Below are positions 59,701 to 64,000 of a stretch of DNA of 64,000 bases, piece by piece. The notes beneath the pieces are model-generated. The model did no database searches. It had not been told where the DNA came from and worked only from the letters and a program-made list of their open reading frames with translations. Origin of the DNA: Natrinema ejinorense (GTDB taxonomy: Archaea > Halobacteriota > Halobacteria > Halobacteriales > Natrialbaceae); assembly GCF_002494345.1 (NCBI RefSeq), contig NZ_NXNI01000002.1, positions 310,001 to 374,000 of the forward strand, written 5' to 3'. The stretch's first letter is position 1. Each line of letters opens with the position of its first letter. Both the position numbers and the translations under genes were made by a program.

Positions 59701-60690
59701 TTACTGTCGTGACGGGTTTCCTTCCCCGCATCCGACGAGCGAGGCGTAGTCTTCGATCACGTTCGCGTCATGGTCGATATATTCGTTAGTCCAAACTTCG
59801 CCCGGGTCGATCGATCCATCGAGTAGTGTCGTTTCCTGTAGGTACTCCGAAAGACGCTGCCACCGCTGCGGGCGGTGGGCGCCCCAGCCCGCTTCTGTGA
59901 GACCGTCGTGATACTGTAACCCGTCAACGGCGGCACGTAACTTTCGAGTCTCTATCCATCGGCGTTGTTCGAGCGTCGCGTTCCGACTGATCAGTGCATC
60001 GATGGCGGCATCGGGGTCGTTCGTCGCGGCGGCCCAGCCCCGCGCGGTTGCGCGGAGGAATGCTCGAACCGCCGTCGGGTTCTGCGCGGCGAACGATTCG
60101 TTAGTCACCAGCATCATCCCGTATACGCCCAGCAATTCACCGATCGGGAGTTCGTCGGATTGGCGGCCGTGTTCGTGTTCGAGTTCAACGCCGTTTGTCA
60201 CGACACCAACTGCTGCGTCGACGGTCCCCTCGAGGAGTTGATGTTCGACGCGATGATGAGTGTTCGGATCAACCGGTTTCAGGTCGACCTCCGAACGGAT
60301 ACCGGCTCGTTCGAGCGCTTGTGCGGCTAGAATCCTGGTCTTCGTTGCCGATGGGGCAACGGTCGTGCCGGCCAGTTGTGCCGGATCGGATAGCGGTTCG
60401 TCGAATACGTCCCGGAGCGTATAGAACGCCGCCGGCGTTCGGTTGGTTACGGCGGCGATCGCGATCGGATCCTCCCCCTGACTCCGCGTCGCGAGCACGG
60501 CGCTCGCACCCGCGAGTCCGATGTCCGCATTCCCTCGAGCGGCCTGTTTGGCTGCATAGGGGGAACCGTGCCCTTCAACGAATTGGATTGTCACTCCTTC
60601 GTCCTCGTAAAACCCTCGCCGACGAGCGAGGAAGTACGGTGCTTGAAATCCGTTTGGTTCCCAGTTTAGTTGGAAGGTGACGGATGTCAT
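59701..60690 (-). CDS. THI5/NMT1-fold protein 1, no signal peptide
   Basis: The 329-aa protein opens VTFQLNWEPNGFQAPYFLA, the motif of yeast Thi5 (ITFLLNWQPTPYHIPIFLA) and of NMT1-like ABC binding proteins. Two-lobe features follow: GHGSPYAAKQAARGNADIGL, LAGTTVAPSATKTR and VTNESFAAQNPTAVRAFLRATARGW. It has no signal peptide or lipobox, so it should be cytoplasmic. The Thi5 HCCCFC site is not present. It is the last of three genes with 4-bp overlaps; no permease or ATPase is nearby. It could be a binding protein, a sensor, or an enzyme like dihydroxyphthalate decarboxylase. Confidence 0.88.
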   Translation of the reverse strand: MTSVTFQLNWEPNGFQAPYFLARRRGFYEDEGVTIQFVEGHGSPYAAKQAARGNADIGLAGASAVLATRSQGEDPIAIAAVTNRTPAAFYTLRDVFDEPLSDPAQLAGTTVAPSATKTRILAAQALERAGIRSEVDLKPVDPNTHHRVEHQLLEGTVDAAVGVVTNGVELEHEHGRQSDELPIGELLGVYGMMLVTNESFAAQNPTAVRAFLRATARGWAAATNDPDAAIDALISRNATLEQRRWIETRKLRAAVDGLQYHDGLTEAGWGAHRPQRWQRLSEYLQETTLLDGSIDPGEVWTNEYIDHDANVIEDYASLVGCGEGNPSRQ

Positions 60691-61676
60691 GGTTCGAGTG
60701 TCGTCCGGAACGTTTCCGGGGGGATTCGGTCGACGCCCAATGCGTTCGGGCCGGCTAGATCGAGGATGTACGCGAACAATTGTTCCATTCCGAGAACTGT
60801 CTCAGGGCCCCAGTCTTTAACGACCATGTCTCGCCATCTGTCACGGACTGCGGTGACGATTGCGTAGTCGTCGTAGGGTATTAATCGGTTGCCGAGGATT
60901 CGCCAGTGGCGATCCTCTGTTCGCAATCGGTCGACGGCTTCTCTGTAGGCGGCGACGAACCCGCGAACGGTGTCCGGCCGGTCCGCGAGGAACTGTTCGC
61001 TCGTCAGAAACGTTGAGACCGGAATTTTTTCATCCGTATCGGCAAGTCGCTGGACGACGTCGGCGACGGAAAACACCTCTGTGTATGGTCCGCGTTCAGT
61101 GATTTCGGGGATAATCTGCCAGAATTGGAGGATTGCGTCAACTGCTCCGGTCTGGAGCAGTTCGGTAAGAGCAACCTTGGACTCGGCTTCGATAGGGGTT
61201 GCCGTTCGGTCGGGGTCAAACCCATGGTACTTCCGACAGGCCGCTCGTACGAGAATCCAATTCTTATCGAGTCGCCGTACGACTCCGATACGGTGTCCGG
61301 AAAGGTCGCCGAGTCCCTCGATATCCGTTCCCTCGTGGGCGACGAGTCCGCCGACCGTGCGTCCGTATGGATGAAACCCGACGATCTGTGCGCCGTCTAC
61401 TCGTTCGCGCGCAGTAGAAATATAGTCGATATCGATGAGATCGGCAGCCCCGTCCTGAAGACGGGCCTCGACGGTCTCGAGTCCTTCTTCGAGTGCATCC
61501 GAGACGAGTTCCAACTCGAGGTGGAACCCGTGTTTGTGGTCTAAGCCCAGGCGTTTGATGGTATACAGCAGGTATCGTGGACTTCCATTGTGCTCGAATC
61601 GAGCTCGCATCACGGGCCGTCCTTCGGGCGACGTGTGTGCGTCGTCGATAACCGCTTGCTGTGTGTCGATATTCAT
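60687..61676 (-). CDS. THI5/NMT1-fold protein 2, no signal peptide
   Basis: The 329-aa protein has a substrate-binding-protein fold: LELVSDALEEGLETVEARLQDGAADLIDIDYI (quoted in part), then DLSGHRIGVVRRLDKNWIL as hinge/lobe 2, VDAILQFWQIIPE and FVAAYREAVDRLRTEDRHW. An N-terminal extension of about 25 polar residues precedes the fold and lacks a signal. It does not carry the LNW entry of protein 1 and is only distantly similar. Overlap with both neighbours by 4 bp (ATGA type) shows strict co-translation. The ligand is unknown. Confidence 0.82.
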   Translation of the reverse strand: MNIDTQQAVIDDAHTSPEGRPVMRARFEHNGSPRYLLYTIKRLGLDHKHGFHLELELVSDALEEGLETVEARLQDGAADLIDIDYISTARERVDGAQIVGFHPYGRTVGGLVAHEGTDIEGLGDLSGHRIGVVRRLDKNWILVRAACRKYHGFDPDRTATPIEAESKVALTELLQTGAVDAILQFWQIIPEITERGPYTEVFSVADVVQRLADTDEKIPVSTFLTSEQFLADRPDTVRGFVAAYREAVDRLRTEDRHWRILGNRLIPYDDYAIVTAVRDRWRDMVVKDWGPETVLGMEQLFAYILDLAGPNALGVDRIPPETFRTTLEP

Positions 61677-62572
61677 GTTCTGCTCGAGGCGACGATCTCC
61701 TGAACGGTGGCGTTCGAATCAATAAGTTGGTGGTGTTTCATCCACTCGAGGTGCGACGCGAGGGCGTCCGGATCAACGGGCTCCGGTTGCTTGTACCGGG
61801 GAACGTCGATAGTAGCGGCAAGTTCCTCGACGGAGACGCCGTCGAACAAGTTCGGCTCCTCTTTCATATCGTCGAAGAGCATTTCCAAATACGCTTCACG
61901 GTAGGCGGATGGGTTCCGATTGATCTCCTTGGCGGCCCGCCCGTATGCGTTCAGAAATGCCGAAAGCCGATGTTCATCGAGGGTATCGGCTCCGACTATC
62001 CCGATGTGATTTTCGAATTCGAGAACCGATCGGAATCCGAGACGATCCGCGAGCGCGCTCTGTGGCTCCAATAACGAAATCGCGTCGACGTTACCTTCCT
62101 GGAGCGCACGAAGGCGATCGATCGGGAGTCCGTGGTGTTCGAGGACAATGTCGCGGTCGTCAACGTGTGGATCCAGCGCGCGCATCACCGTATATTCCTG
62201 CCCCGTTCGCCGATTCACACCCACTGGGACGCCTGCCAGATCGCCGGGCGTCTCGATATCCGACTCAGGTCGGACGAACACGCGGTACGGGAGATCGGAA
62301 AACGTCCCGTTTGCGACAACCTTTCCGTCATCCATTTCCCACGTCCGTTTAATACTCTCCCACTTACAGATGGGATAGATGTCGACGTCGTATTCCTGCG
62401 TAAGCCGTTCGTCGGCCGGAATGTACTTCCAGTCAACTGAAGATCGATCACGCGTAACGAGGGTGGCGTCGAGTCCCTCAGCGGCGAAATACCCCTTCTC
62501 GATCGCCACTCGCTGTGGGAGCATAAACGAGAACGGGAGATGAAACAATCGAATTGTCTCACTCATATTCAT
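61673..62572 (-). CDS. THI5/NMT1-fold protein 3, no signal peptide
   Basis: The 299-aa protein opens TIRLFHLPFSFMLPQRVAIEKGYFAAEGLDATLV, quoted in parts, typical of lobe 1 of NMT1-like proteins. It continues CKWESIKRTWE, PYRVFVRPESDIETPGDLAG, GVNRRTGQEYTVMRAL and LSAFLNAYGRAAKEINRNPSAYREAY. No signal or lipobox precedes it. It is promoter-proximal in the three-gene unit; a minus-strand TATA-like ATTATAG lies at 62592-62598, near 27 nt upstream. ATG 62572 or 62566 may both be used. Confidence 0.85.
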   Translation of the reverse strand: MNMSETIRLFHLPFSFMLPQRVAIEKGYFAAEGLDATLVTRDRSSVDWKYIPADERLTQEYDVDIYPICKWESIKRTWEMDDGKVVANGTFSDLPYRVFVRPESDIETPGDLAGVPVGVNRRTGQEYTVMRALDPHVDDRDIVLEHHGLPIDRLRALQEGNVDAISLLEPQSALADRLGFRSVLEFENHIGIVGADTLDEHRLSAFLNAYGRAAKEINRNPSAYREAYLEMLFDDMKEEPNLFDGVSVEELAATIDVPRYKQPEPVDPDALASHLEWMKHHQLIDSNATVQEIVASSRT

Positions 62573-62591
62573 TAATCCAATTACGTTCTTC

Positions 62592-62600
62592 TATAATAAT
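62592..62600 (-). promoter_or_regulatory. TATA box for the triple THI5-fold unit
   Basis: On the minus strand ATTATTATAG lies about 27 nt upstream of the start at 62572/62566. The divergent plus-strand TATA for the cupin gene is 40 bp away. Confidence 0.55.
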
Positions 62601-62630
62601 TCTTTTGCAGAAAAGTTTAAATAATTATAG

Positions 62631-62636
62631 TATAAG
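62631..62636 (+). promoter_or_regulatory. TATA box for the cupin gene
   Basis: TATAAG is centred 27 nt before the GTG at 62660. It supports GTG as a leaderless start. Confidence 0.6.
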
Positions 62637-62659
62637 AGTACCGAACGGAGGACAAGACC

Positions 62660-63001
62660 GTGAAACGAGTCAGCGAAGGTGAGCGTAACGTAGTTGAAGT
62701 CGCTGACGGGGTCTATCTGGCGGACCTCGCCGGCGGGCAGGAAGCAGGTATGACGTATTGGCGTATTGACCCAGGAAAAACGCTCCCGCCACACCGTCAT
62801 CAGAACGAGCAGATCGGATACGTCATTCACGGCGAACTGACGGCGATCCTCGAGACGAGTGAAGTTCCGCTCCGACCGGGTGATTCTTACGCGTTCCTCA
62901 GCCAGGAGTATCACGGCGCGGAGAATCGAGGTGACCGCCCAGCCGTTGGTATTGGTGTCCTTAGTCCACCACGTTCCGAACCGGAATGGGGAACCGACTG
63001 A
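62660..63001 (+). CDS. Cupin-domain protein
   Basis: The 113-aa single cupin has motif 1 HRHQNEQIGYVIHGELTAIL (metal His/Glu, about 45-64) and motif 2 PGDSYAFLSQEYHGAENRGDRP (about 74-95) with the distal His. The conserved metal ligands are intact. It could be a small dioxygenase, isomerase or metabolite sensor. The start is GTG at 62660, matched by a TATA at 27 nt. It is divergent from the triple THI5-fold genes and probably shares their inducer. Confidence 0.9.
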   Translation: MKRVSEGERNVVEVADGVYLADLAGGQEAGMTYWRIDPGKTLPPHRHQNEQIGYVIHGELTAILETSEVPLRPGDSYAFLSQEYHGAENRGDRPAVGIGVLSPPRSEPEWGTD

Positions 63002-63136
63002 CCATTACCTGGTCTCGGTTTCGGTCGTCGACCGACTTTGCCTTCCATCGTAGTGTTACCCGAACGTCGCGCTTCCGTTATAACACTACGGCAGGGTCAG
63101 TGACCGATGGCACGACAGAGTCCCATTCTTCCTCGG

Positions 63137-63146
63137 TTTTATATAA
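63137..63146 (+). promoter_or_regulatory. TATA box for the VOC gene
   Basis: TTTTATATAA is centred 27 nt before ATG 63170. It supports a leaderless transcript. Confidence 0.6.
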
Positions 63147-63169
63147 TATTGCGATATACTCTAAATCAG

Positions 63170-63601
63170 ATGGACTCCGTTGATCATATAAACATCGACG
63201 TGAACGATCTCGAGGCGTGTTATCAGTTCTACCGAGATGAACTCGCATTAACGGAGTTGCGACCTCCGGAGTCGTTTCAGGGAGACCATGCGATGTTCGA
63301 GGCTGGTGATACGGTCGTAACGTTGGTCGAGACCGGACGCGCCGATCGCTGGGGGCACCGTCAACTCGCTCATCCACTCGATAAATCTCATCTCGCGTTC
63401 AGGGCTGAACCGTCCACGTACGATCGCTTCGTCGAAACGTTCGCCGATCAATTTCCCAATCAGGGACCGTACGATTGGGGAGAATCTGAGGGATACTACT
63501 TTCTCGATCCCGACGGCAACCTCCTGGAGGTCGTTACGGATATCCGGCAATCGATACGCCGCGACCAACCGCTTCTCACCCACGACGATGTTACGGACTA
63601 G
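63170..63601 (+). CDS. VOC family (glyoxalase-like) protein
   Basis: The 143-aa protein has the vicinal-oxygen-chelate fold: VDHINIDVNDLEACYQFYRDELAL (metal His, about 5-28, quoted in part), VVTLVETGRADR, SHLAFRAEPSTYDRFVE (metal His) and YYFLDPDGNLLEVVTDI (metal Glu, about 109-125). VOC enzymes include glyoxalase I, extradiol dioxygenases and fosfomycin-resistance proteins. Here a ring-cleavage or isomerase role would fit the catabolic island; that is inference. It has its own TATA 27 nt upstream. Confidence 0.9.
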   Translation: MDSVDHINIDVNDLEACYQFYRDELALTELRPPESFQGDHAMFEAGDTVVTLVETGRADRWGHRQLAHPLDKSHLAFRAEPSTYDRFVETFADQFPNQGPYDWGESEGYYFLDPDGNLLEVVTDIRQSIRRDQPLLTHDDVTD

Positions 63602-63668: not shown

Positions 63669-64000
63669 ATGGTTGGCGTCTGGACGTACCCTTGGACCCT
63701 CTACGAGGAGGGAGTGGATACTGCCTTCGAAACCTTCACCTCACACGGCATTACCAGCGTTTCGGTAGCAACACACCACCATTCGGCGCGAATATTACAG
63801 CCGCGCTTTCCGGACTCGCTTTTCGAGCGACGACCGGCCGGGTGTTACTTCGCGCCGCAGGCGGAGCACTTCGATCGTACTCCACTCAGCCCGATCCAAA
63901 ACGAGATCGAGGCCGTATCGGATCCGCTCGGCGAGATCACCGCCGTGGCGGACGAGTACAACGTTCGGACGAATGGATGGATGGTTACCCTCCATAATTC
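63669..64000 (+). CDS. TIM-barrel-like protein, 5' part
   Basis: The frame starts MVGVWTYPWTLYEEGVDTAFETF and continues GITSVSVATHHHSARILQPRF and ADEYNVRTNGWMVTLHN to the window end, 110 residues. This resembles a TIM-barrel first strand-helix-strand set with a His triplet (HHH, about 39-41) as possible metal or sugar ligands, as in GH-like or sugar-isomerase-like proteins. The 3' end is outside the window. It follows the cupin and VOC genes on the same strand and is probably the next enzyme of the pathway. Confidence 0.6.
   Translation, partial: MVGVWTYPWTLYEEGVDTAFETFTSHGITSVSVATHHHSARILQPRFPDSLFERRPAGCYFAPQAEHFDRTPLSPIQNEIEAVSDPLGEITAVADEYNVRTNGWMVTLHN

What the first reader, a model, noticed from the sequence alone, without database searches (positions are those of the whole stretch)
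59701..62572. Three overlapping THI5/NMT1-fold genes with no signal peptide and no transporter
Three substrate-binding-protein-fold proteins are co-translated (two 4-bp overlaps), all lack export signals and lipoboxes, and no permease or ATPase is present nearby. Protein 1 resembles yeast Thi5 at its entry motif but lacks its HCCCFC cluster. The family includes real enzymes (Thi5; dihydroxyphthalate decarboxylase). A three-subunit cytoplasmic enzyme or ligand-sensing complex would be new.
Basis: partly seen in the sequence, partly recalled or inferred. Interest (0 to 1): 0.72.

Follow-up and report, generated by a model that had tools for sequence, protein, structure and literature searches.

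The report
Cytoplasmic PQQ-type binding-protein trio
In salt-loving archaea, three co-translated binding proteins that look like nutrient-uptake proteins but lack export signals travel together with enzymes resembling PQQ-dependent alcohol dehydrogenases, and one of the three is a relative of a known PQQ-binding protein, so they probably handle that cofactor inside the cell.

Summary
In detail: three PF09084 (NMT1/THI5-like) genes, SBP1-SBP2-SBP3 in transcription order, overlap by 4 bp twice, lack export signals, and have no BPD-type permease nearer than about 118 kb. The trio is a conserved haloarchaeal unit: 54 of 391 Halobacteria genomes carry SBP1 orthologues, and the same 54 carry SBP2. 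A divergent cupin gene is adjacent in 54 of 54 distinct loci; a VOC-family gene is near in 51. The members come from different SBP lineages. SBP2 is the informative one: its closest solved relative by sequence (E 1.9e-26) and by fold (Z 36, next 25) is PqqT, a periplasmic PQQ-binding protein. The trio also follows PQQ-alcohol-dehydrogenase-like proteins: 53 of 54 trio genomes have one; in the window's genus, 12 of 12 with the trio, 0 of 9 without. These proteins appear leaderless, so any PQQ would be inserted in the cytoplasm; they score below the family's curated cut-off. Best reading (0.42): an internalised PqqT-type module that binds PQQ and delivers it to quinoproteins maturing in the cytoplasm. 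Thi5-type catalysis is not supported. Ligand binding, complex formation and the roles of SBP1 and SBP3 are unproven.

The parts
61673..62572 (-). SBP1, first gene of the operon: leaderless SBP-fold protein with invariant Cys69 in a CKWES motif; its distant relatives look leaderless too, several of them beside ABC importers
60687..61676 (-). SBP2: leaderless relative of PqqT (PQQ-binding SBP), with invariant DKNW and FW motifs
59701..60690 (-). SBP3: leaderless relative of thiamin/HMP-type SBPs, of an exported haloarchaeal importer SBP and of N-terminally extended NMT1 proteins; lacks Thi5 catalytic residues
62660..63001 (+). cupin-domain protein, divergent from SBP1 across a short AT-rich gap (62573-62659); adjacent to the trio in 54 of 54 distinct loci
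63107..63601 (+). VOC/glyoxalase-family protein; found near the trio in 51 of 54 distinct loci

Best explanation
The trio is a cytoplasmic cofactor-handling module built around a PqqT-type PQQ-binding protein (SBP2). Shown: conserved order, no export signals, different SBP origins of the members, PqqT homology with the marker lysine kept, and close co-occurrence with PQQ-alcohol-dehydrogenase-like proteins. Inferred: SBP2 binds PQQ (perhaps with its metal) in the cytoplasm; SBP1 and SBP3 are co-translated partners that hold, check or hand over the cofactor. The module loads dehydrogenases that fold in the cytoplasm, either for export with a Tat-bearing partner (as the window's organism suggests) or for use inside the cell. 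Bacteria load such enzymes in the periplasm, where PqqT resides; here the enzyme would be finished before export, so the binding protein has no leader.
For: SBP2 finds the PqqT chains at E 1.9e-26 and 3.8e-26. Its model aligns with three PqqT entries at Z 35.8-36.3, the next entry at 25.0. SBP2, PqqT and five alphaproteobacterial SBPs group with support 0.998 and share LDK[NS]W and [FY]W; those five have leaders and lie among ABC-importer and quinoprotein-related genes. PqqT binds PQQ with Kd 50 nM (PMC12124388, passage). The SBP1 and SBP2 genome sets are identical, 54 of 391. Canonical c5 dehydrogenase: 44 of 54 trio genomes against 11 of 337 others. Of 9 trio genomes without canonical c5, 8 hold another TIGR03075 match (E <= 1e-30) against 0 of 9 trio-less genomes of the window's genus; the window's own genome has two. 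c5 proteins look leaderless. Of 16 aligned to PedH, 15 keep the Cys pair, metal Glu and Asn, and the extra Asp typical of lanthanide enzymes. The c5 partner next to the window passes a Tat-signal model (17.7 bits, cut-off 16.7). PqqC over cut-off: 0 of 391, positive control rings.
Against: No binding data. SBP1 and SBP3 do not resemble PqqT more than other SBPs. The dehydrogenases score best with the PQQ alcohol-dehydrogenase family but below its curated cut-off: 355.8 and 374.1 bits for two canonical c5, 276-288 for the three others scanned, cut-off 480; they also match a PQQ-free 'empty quinoprotein' family, so PQQ content is not shown. The copy next to the window has lost the Cys pair and metal Glu. 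One trio genome (G037) has no match. Eleven genomes have canonical c5 without a trio. c5 lies in the flanks held of only 25 of 54 loci, so the link is mainly co-occurrence, which relatedness and genome size can inflate. In some searches only 3 candidates per genome were scored. The second Tat-like partner of this genome matches no Tat model. How PQQ would reach the cytoplasm without PqqC is unknown. PqqT is exported; this protein is not.
Confidence: 0.42

Rival explanations
1. Cytoplasmic ligand sensor: the leaderless SBPs read an intracellular metabolite and gate an importer or a regulator, as the C-terminal SBP-like domain of cyanobacterial NrtC/CmpC is thought to do.
For: Distant SBP1 relatives that look leaderless lie with ATPase, lipoprotein SBP and permease genes: all four called in 5 of 11 fetched haloarchaeal loci, three of four in 2 more; one lies beside an importer in Geminicoccaceae. 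NrtC/CmpC regulatory domains are among the fold matches of SBP1 (Z 19.4-19.8) and SBP2 (Z 20.1-20.8). SBP3-like proteins with an N-terminal extension that resembles a helix-turn-helix by eye occur near the trio in 10 of 54 loci and once elsewhere in the window's genome. An importer lies near the trio in 7 of 54 loci.
Against: No permease near either trio of this genome and no importer in the flanks held of 47 of 54 loci. The extension has no Pfam match at 0.01 in the one member scanned. A sensor does not explain the PqqT homology together with the dehydrogenase company.
Confidence: 0.2
2. Three-subunit or three-step enzyme of SBP fold acting on an aromatic or quinone carboxylate, with the cupin and VOC proteins as further steps; SBP1 Cys69 would be the nucleophile.
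For: SBP-fold enzymes appear among fold matches: Thi5, MqnD, MqnA, DszB, 4,5-dihydroxyphthalate decarboxylase. SBP1 Cys69 is invariant in 54 distinct sequences and shared with three distant relatives. Two possible metalloenzymes are near-fixed neighbours (cupin 54 of 54, VOC 51 of 54), and 25 of 47 loci with at least 8 kb on both sides hold an aldehyde- or formate-type oxidoreductase gene.
Against: Thi5 catalytic residues are absent from SBP3. Fold matches to SBP enzymes are weaker than to the best binding proteins. No reaction can be named from the evidence.
Confidence: 0.18
3. Ordinary importer SBPs that escape through an unusual route, served by a distant permease.
For: PF09084 proteins are mostly annotated as importer SBPs in the records seen here; an importer is near 7 of 54 trios.
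Against: No signal in 54, 54 and 53 orthologues. Outside the trios the genome's PF09084 matches are one N-terminally extended protein, a HisG-like protein and one weak partial hit. Where an importer is adjacent it has an SBP gene of its own.
Confidence: 0.06

Closest known systems
PqqT of Methylorubrum (Methylobacterium) extorquens (PDB 9b1u, 9b1v, 9ooz)
   Same: SBP2: sequence homology, fold, lysine at the K142 position, aromatic-Trp pair, genomic company of quinoprotein-like dehydrogenases
   Different: SBP2 is leaderless, archaeal, co-translated with two other SBPs and without a permease or ATPase; binding not tested
Thi5/Thi13 HMP-phosphate synthase of yeasts (4h65, 4esx)
   Same: SBP3 shares family and the N-terminal LNW motif; no leader
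   Different: SBP3 lacks the residues at Lys62 and His66 and the CCCFC cluster
Thiamin/HMP-type importer SBPs (4nmy, ThiY-type 3ix1)
   Same: best sequence matches of the SBP3 profile among solved structures
   Different: SBP3 has no leader and no importer beside it in this genome
NrtC/CmpC C-terminal cytoplasmic SBP-like regulatory domains
   Same: SBP fold used inside the cell
   Different: part of the ATPase subunit of an importer; the trio is stand-alone
4,5-dihydroxyphthalate decarboxylase (9jp7)
   Same: SBP fold, enzyme (function recalled)
   Different: only a weak fold match to SBP2 (Z 15.2); not among the sequence matches listed for SBP1, SBP2 or SBP3

Membership tests
PqqT (PQQ-binding SBP) | sequence homology closer than to other SBPs | tested here: met
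   E 1.9e-26; next non-PqqT chain 0.31; clade support 0.998
PqqT (PQQ-binding SBP) | fold closest to PqqT | tested here: met
   Z 35.8-36.3 to three PqqT entries, next 25.0
PqqT (PQQ-binding SBP) | lysine at position 142 and aromatic at position 161 | tested here: met
   SBP2 K138, F185 and W186 invariant in 54 distinct orthologues; register; K142 named in PMC12828617 passages, Y161 in the title of 9ooz; the K142 numbering offset is my inference, and that both contact PQQ is recalled
PqqT (PQQ-binding SBP) | exported to the periplasm | tested here: not met
   no leader in 54 of 54; the five alphaproteobacterial relatives have one
PqqT (PQQ-binding SBP) | binds PQQ with nanomolar affinity | not testable with these tools
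   needs purified protein
Thi5 HMP-P synthase | Lys62 and His66 (PLP lysine, substrate histidine; roles recalled) | tested here: not met
   Ala at both aligned positions in SBP3; H66 named in the title of 4esw
Thi5 HMP-P synthase | CCCFC cluster | tested here: not met
   absent in the SBP3 alignment
ABC importer SBP | signal peptide or lipobox | tested here: not met
ABC importer SBP | cognate permease and ATPase adjacent | tested here: not met
   nearest PF00528 permease about 118 kb away; importer near 7 of 54 trios in other genomes
4,5-dihydroxyphthalate decarboxylase | homology or close fold match | tested here: inconclusive
   SBP2 fold Z 15.2 to 9jp7; other tests of this family were not made
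NrtC/CmpC regulatory domain | fused to or acting on an ABC ATPase | tested here: inconclusive
   not fused; several distant SBP1 relatives lie beside importers, the trio mostly does not

The most novel reading that the evidence does not exclude
Haloarchaea run an intracellular PQQ (or PQQ-like quinone) economy: the trio with its fixed cupin and VOC neighbours makes, repairs or completes the cofactor in the cytoplasm without PqqC, and hands it, possibly with a lanthanide, to dehydrogenases that act inside the cell or leave it already loaded through Tat. That would be a cofactor assembly line built from three recruited uptake proteins.
Probability: 0.1. Interest if true: 0.9.

Novelty: new variant of a known kind. 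Interest (0 to 1): 0.6.

Why it matters
In Gram-negative bacteria PQQ enzymes are periplasmic and take up PQQ there (PMC12124388, passages). A leaderless PQQ-type binding protein tied to dehydrogenases that also look leaderless, and mostly carry the lanthanide-type aspartate, would put quinoprotein maturation, and in many haloarchaea perhaps catalysis, inside the cell. It would give a function to a gene set that the annotated plasmid records seen here call only 'ABC transporter substrate-binding protein', and it raises a testable question: where do archaea without PqqC get PQQ? It is also a case of uptake-type proteins from different lineages joined, without leaders, in one operon.

Tried and rejected
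Thi5-type catalysis for SBP3: rejected on residues. Tandem duplication as origin of the trio: rejected, as the three fall in separate SBP groups; SBP2 alone is duplicated in 5 of 58 loci. Simple importer SBPs: rejected. AOR or other oxidoreductases as the fixed partner: not fixed (AOR 16, FDH-like 10, aldehyde dehydrogenase 4, xanthine-dehydrogenase type 1 of 54). Adjacency of c5 as proof: not enough (25 of 54), so co-occurrence was tested. Specificity check: of 18 trio-less genomes with only the distant SBP1 relative, 2 have canonical c5 (counted by eye). Papers: the hits for the PDB codes 9B1U, 9B1V, 9OOZ were all physics or chemistry papers (listing); the PqqT structure paper is not held, so PQQ contacts could not be listed. 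PMC3863723 mentions PQQ only for Gluconobacter and related bacteria (passage); in PMC12942990 'quinoprotein' is only in a reference title. Counts that changed: one search gave lower neighbour counts (cupin 18, VOC 17 of 22) because its ORF choice missed genes; one search replaces it. On rechecking, the HTH part of the extended NMT1 proteins proved to be by eye only (no Pfam match in the one scanned), and one search showed c5 below the curated cut-off; the best reading was lowered from 0.45 to 0.42 for that. L096 (a 5.8-kb fragment without usable hits) was dropped from the 59 loci; identical sequences were collapsed to 54. No complex prediction could be run. SBP3 was not folded (both prediction jobs went to SBP2 and SBP1).
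Full report
What is there. On the minus strand of window 59701-62572 three ORFs overlap by four bases twice: SBP1 (61673-62572), SBP2 (60687-61676), SBP3 (59701-60690) in transcription order. All match Pfam NMT1/THI5-like over its cut-off. A cupin gene (62660-63001) diverges from SBP1 and a VOC-family gene follows it. The window is part of a 415,920-base contig of a 4.48-Mb genome. The genus is probably Natrinema: contig G143:C2 of the same genus has the length and match position of a Natrinema salinisoli plasmid (inference). The genome has a second trio on its main contig; its members are 60-65% identical to those of the window.

No transporter, no leader. No PF00528 permease domain lies on this contig nearer than C2:249637-251747, about 118 kb away. 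Apart from the two trios the genome's PF09084 matches are one N-terminally extended protein (the extension resembles a helix-turn-helix by eye), a HisG-like protein and one weak partial hit. No distinct orthologue of SBP1 (54), SBP2 (54) or SBP3 (53) has a hydrophobic N-terminal stretch or a lipobox; start options of 30 SBP1 orthologues were read one by one.

A conserved unit. SBP1 orthologues (56-64% identical, besides the window's own) occur in 54 of 391 Halobacteria genomes; 22 further genomes have only distant or weak matches. A SBP2 profile finds the same 54, plus three genomes at E 3.5e-10 to 1.4e-9. Of 58 loci with SBP1 and SBP2, 57 have SBP3 in the same order; Halolamina salifodinae (L076) lacks it. 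In 54 distinct loci (47 with at least 8 kb on both sides) the cupin is adjacent in 54 and the VOC gene near in 51. Other neighbours vary: c5 25, c6 23, AOR 16, CDC48-type ATPase 12, FDH-like 10, extended NMT1 protein 10, ABC importer 7, aldehyde dehydrogenase 4, xanthine-dehydrogenase type 1. A scan of 84,980 species with two SBP1 peptide patterns, which finds close relatives only, returned 35 loci, all titled as haloarchaea or, once, Euryarchaeota.

Different origins. In a tree of 40 sequences SBP2 groups with PqqT and five alphaproteobacterial SBPs (support 0.998). SBP3 lies on the same side of a 0.991 split as an exported haloarchaeal importer SBP and the extended NMT1 proteins. SBP1 groups (0.994) with proteins of Geminicoccaceae, Mesorhizobium and Halococcus that look leaderless and share its Cys69. 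So the trio was assembled from different lineages, which favours a joint task.

SBP2 and PqqT. SBP2 matches the chains of 9b1u/9b1v and 9ooz at E 1.9e-26 and 3.8e-26; [quoted passage not shown] Its AlphaFold2 model (pLDDT 88.8) aligns at Z 35.8-36.3; SsuA follows at 25.0. PqqT binds PQQ with Kd 50 nM (PMC12124388, passage); its Lys142 was changed to Asp in a La-binding variant (PMC12828617, passages). By alignment and an inferred numbering offset Lys142 is SBP2 Lys138, and Tyr161 is Phe185, followed by Trp186; all three are invariant in 54 distinct orthologues. The five alphaproteobacterial relatives have leaders; their stretches hold an ABC permease and/or ATPase, and PQQ/XoxF dehydrogenase or quinoprotein-relay genes.

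Link to PQQ-dehydrogenase-like proteins. A 568-577 aa protein (c5), best matched by PQQ_enz_alc_DH, recurs near the trio with a partner (c6). Canonical c5 (E below 1e-200) is in 44 of 54 trio genomes and 11 of 337 others (Fisher p 6e-38, not corrected for relatedness). With the window's divergent c5 as query (E <= 1e-60) the figures are 48 of 54 and 14 of 337. Nine trio genomes without canonical c5 were searched with TIGR03075 at E <= 1e-30: 8 have a match, only G037 none; of 9 trio-less genomes of the window's genus 0 do. The window's genome has two c6-c5 pairs. So 53 of 54 trio genomes have such a protein; in the genus, 12 of 12 with the trio and 0 of 9 without, including a same-species genome (G005) with neither. 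Cautions: none of the 18 genomes has a match over the family's curated cut-off of 480 bits, E. coli among the control genomes also rings below it, canonical c5 scores 355.8 and 374.1 (two scanned), only three candidates per genome were scored, and larger genomes may carry more of everything.

Leaderless dehydrogenases. By eye, c5 proteins start without a leader (26 ORFs, some from the same organism, one with an over-extended frame; further types, where the N-terminus of L157 is not readable). Of 16 of the 26 aligned to PedH, 15 keep the Cys pair, the metal Glu and Asn, and Asp-Tyr-Asp, while a PedH Arg is Lys; the exception is the copy next to the window, with Cys-Cys and Glu changed. The second Asp marks lanthanide enzymes (PMC8546591, passages). 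The window genome's other copy keeps Glu, Asn and Asp-Tyr-Asp but not the Cys pair. c6 bears RRxFL plus a more hydrophobic stretch in 6 of 28 ORFs (two truncated, two duplicates among the 28), two of the six from the window's genome; in most others the stretch is absent. Only the window-side c6 passes a Tat model; of three other RRxFL-bearing c6 scanned, one gave a formate-dehydrogenase TAT-target match below cut-off and two none. So c5 may leave with a Tat-bearing c6 or stay inside; both would need PQQ inserted in the cytoplasm (Tat exports folded proteins: recalled). PqqC reaches the cut-off in 0 of 391 genomes, one weak match below it; a Phyllobacterium plasmid rings at 1.5e-102 as positive control. 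The source of PQQ is unknown.

SBP1 and SBP3. SBP1 (model pLDDT 91.3) is nearest to SsuA (Z 23.0) and not specially to PqqT (18.7). Its distant relatives sit with all three importer genes in 5 of 11 fetched loci and with two of them in 2 more, which supports a sensor role as a rival. SBP3 is nearest to a thiamin SBP; ThiY-type and Thi5 proteins follow; Thi5 catalysis is not supported by the residues.

Verdict. 'Cytoplasmic complex' is plausible, 'Thi5-like enzyme' is not supported. The best-supported function is cytoplasmic PQQ handling for quinoproteins (0.42). Literature searches for haloarchaea or Halobacteria with pyrroloquinoline quinone, lanthanide, PQQ-dependent or quinoprotein (listings, with passages of two hits) showed no description of such a system in what was listed; most subscription papers are not held.

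Noticed in passing
L009:8862-11617 (own contig C2:380861-383616, beyond the window's end): c6-c5 pair: protein of unknown family that passes a Tat-signal model, followed by a leaderless PQQ-ADH-like protein whose Cys pair and metal Glu are changed.
   Followed up: partly
L158:8026-13099 (own C1): Second pair: c6 with an RRxFL motif, leaderless PQQ-ADH-like protein with Asp-Tyr-Asp, then on the other strand a protein that by eye joins a Tat signal, a cupredoxin-like part and a glucose/sorbosone-dehydrogenase domain (PF07995).
   Followed up: partly
L003:748-2259 (own C1:1159k); L051, L053, L057, L060, L101: NMT1 SBP domain behind an N-terminal extension that resembles a winged helix by eye (no Pfam match in the one scanned), near the trio in 10 of 54 loci: possible ligand-sensing regulators.
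   Followed up: partly
L141, L143, L145, L147, L149 (all four genes called); L139, L144 (three): Distant SBP1 relatives that look leaderless, beside ABC importer genes with a separate lipoprotein SBP.
   Followed up: partly
L047, L049, L055, L085, L092: SBP2 duplicated, giving SBP1-SBP2-SBP2'-SBP3.
   Followed up: no
c6 family, N-termini: A Tat signal that may have decayed in place: an RR-like region seems to align but the hydrophobic stretch is absent in most members.
   Followed up: partly
L009:4199-7072: Three genes, each overlapping the next, that look by eye like sialic/nonulosonic acid synthesis (NeuB-, NeuC-, NeuD-like).
   Followed up: no
window 63669-63998 and on (L009:1670-2821): 383-aa protein without a Pfam match at 0.01.
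   Followed up: no
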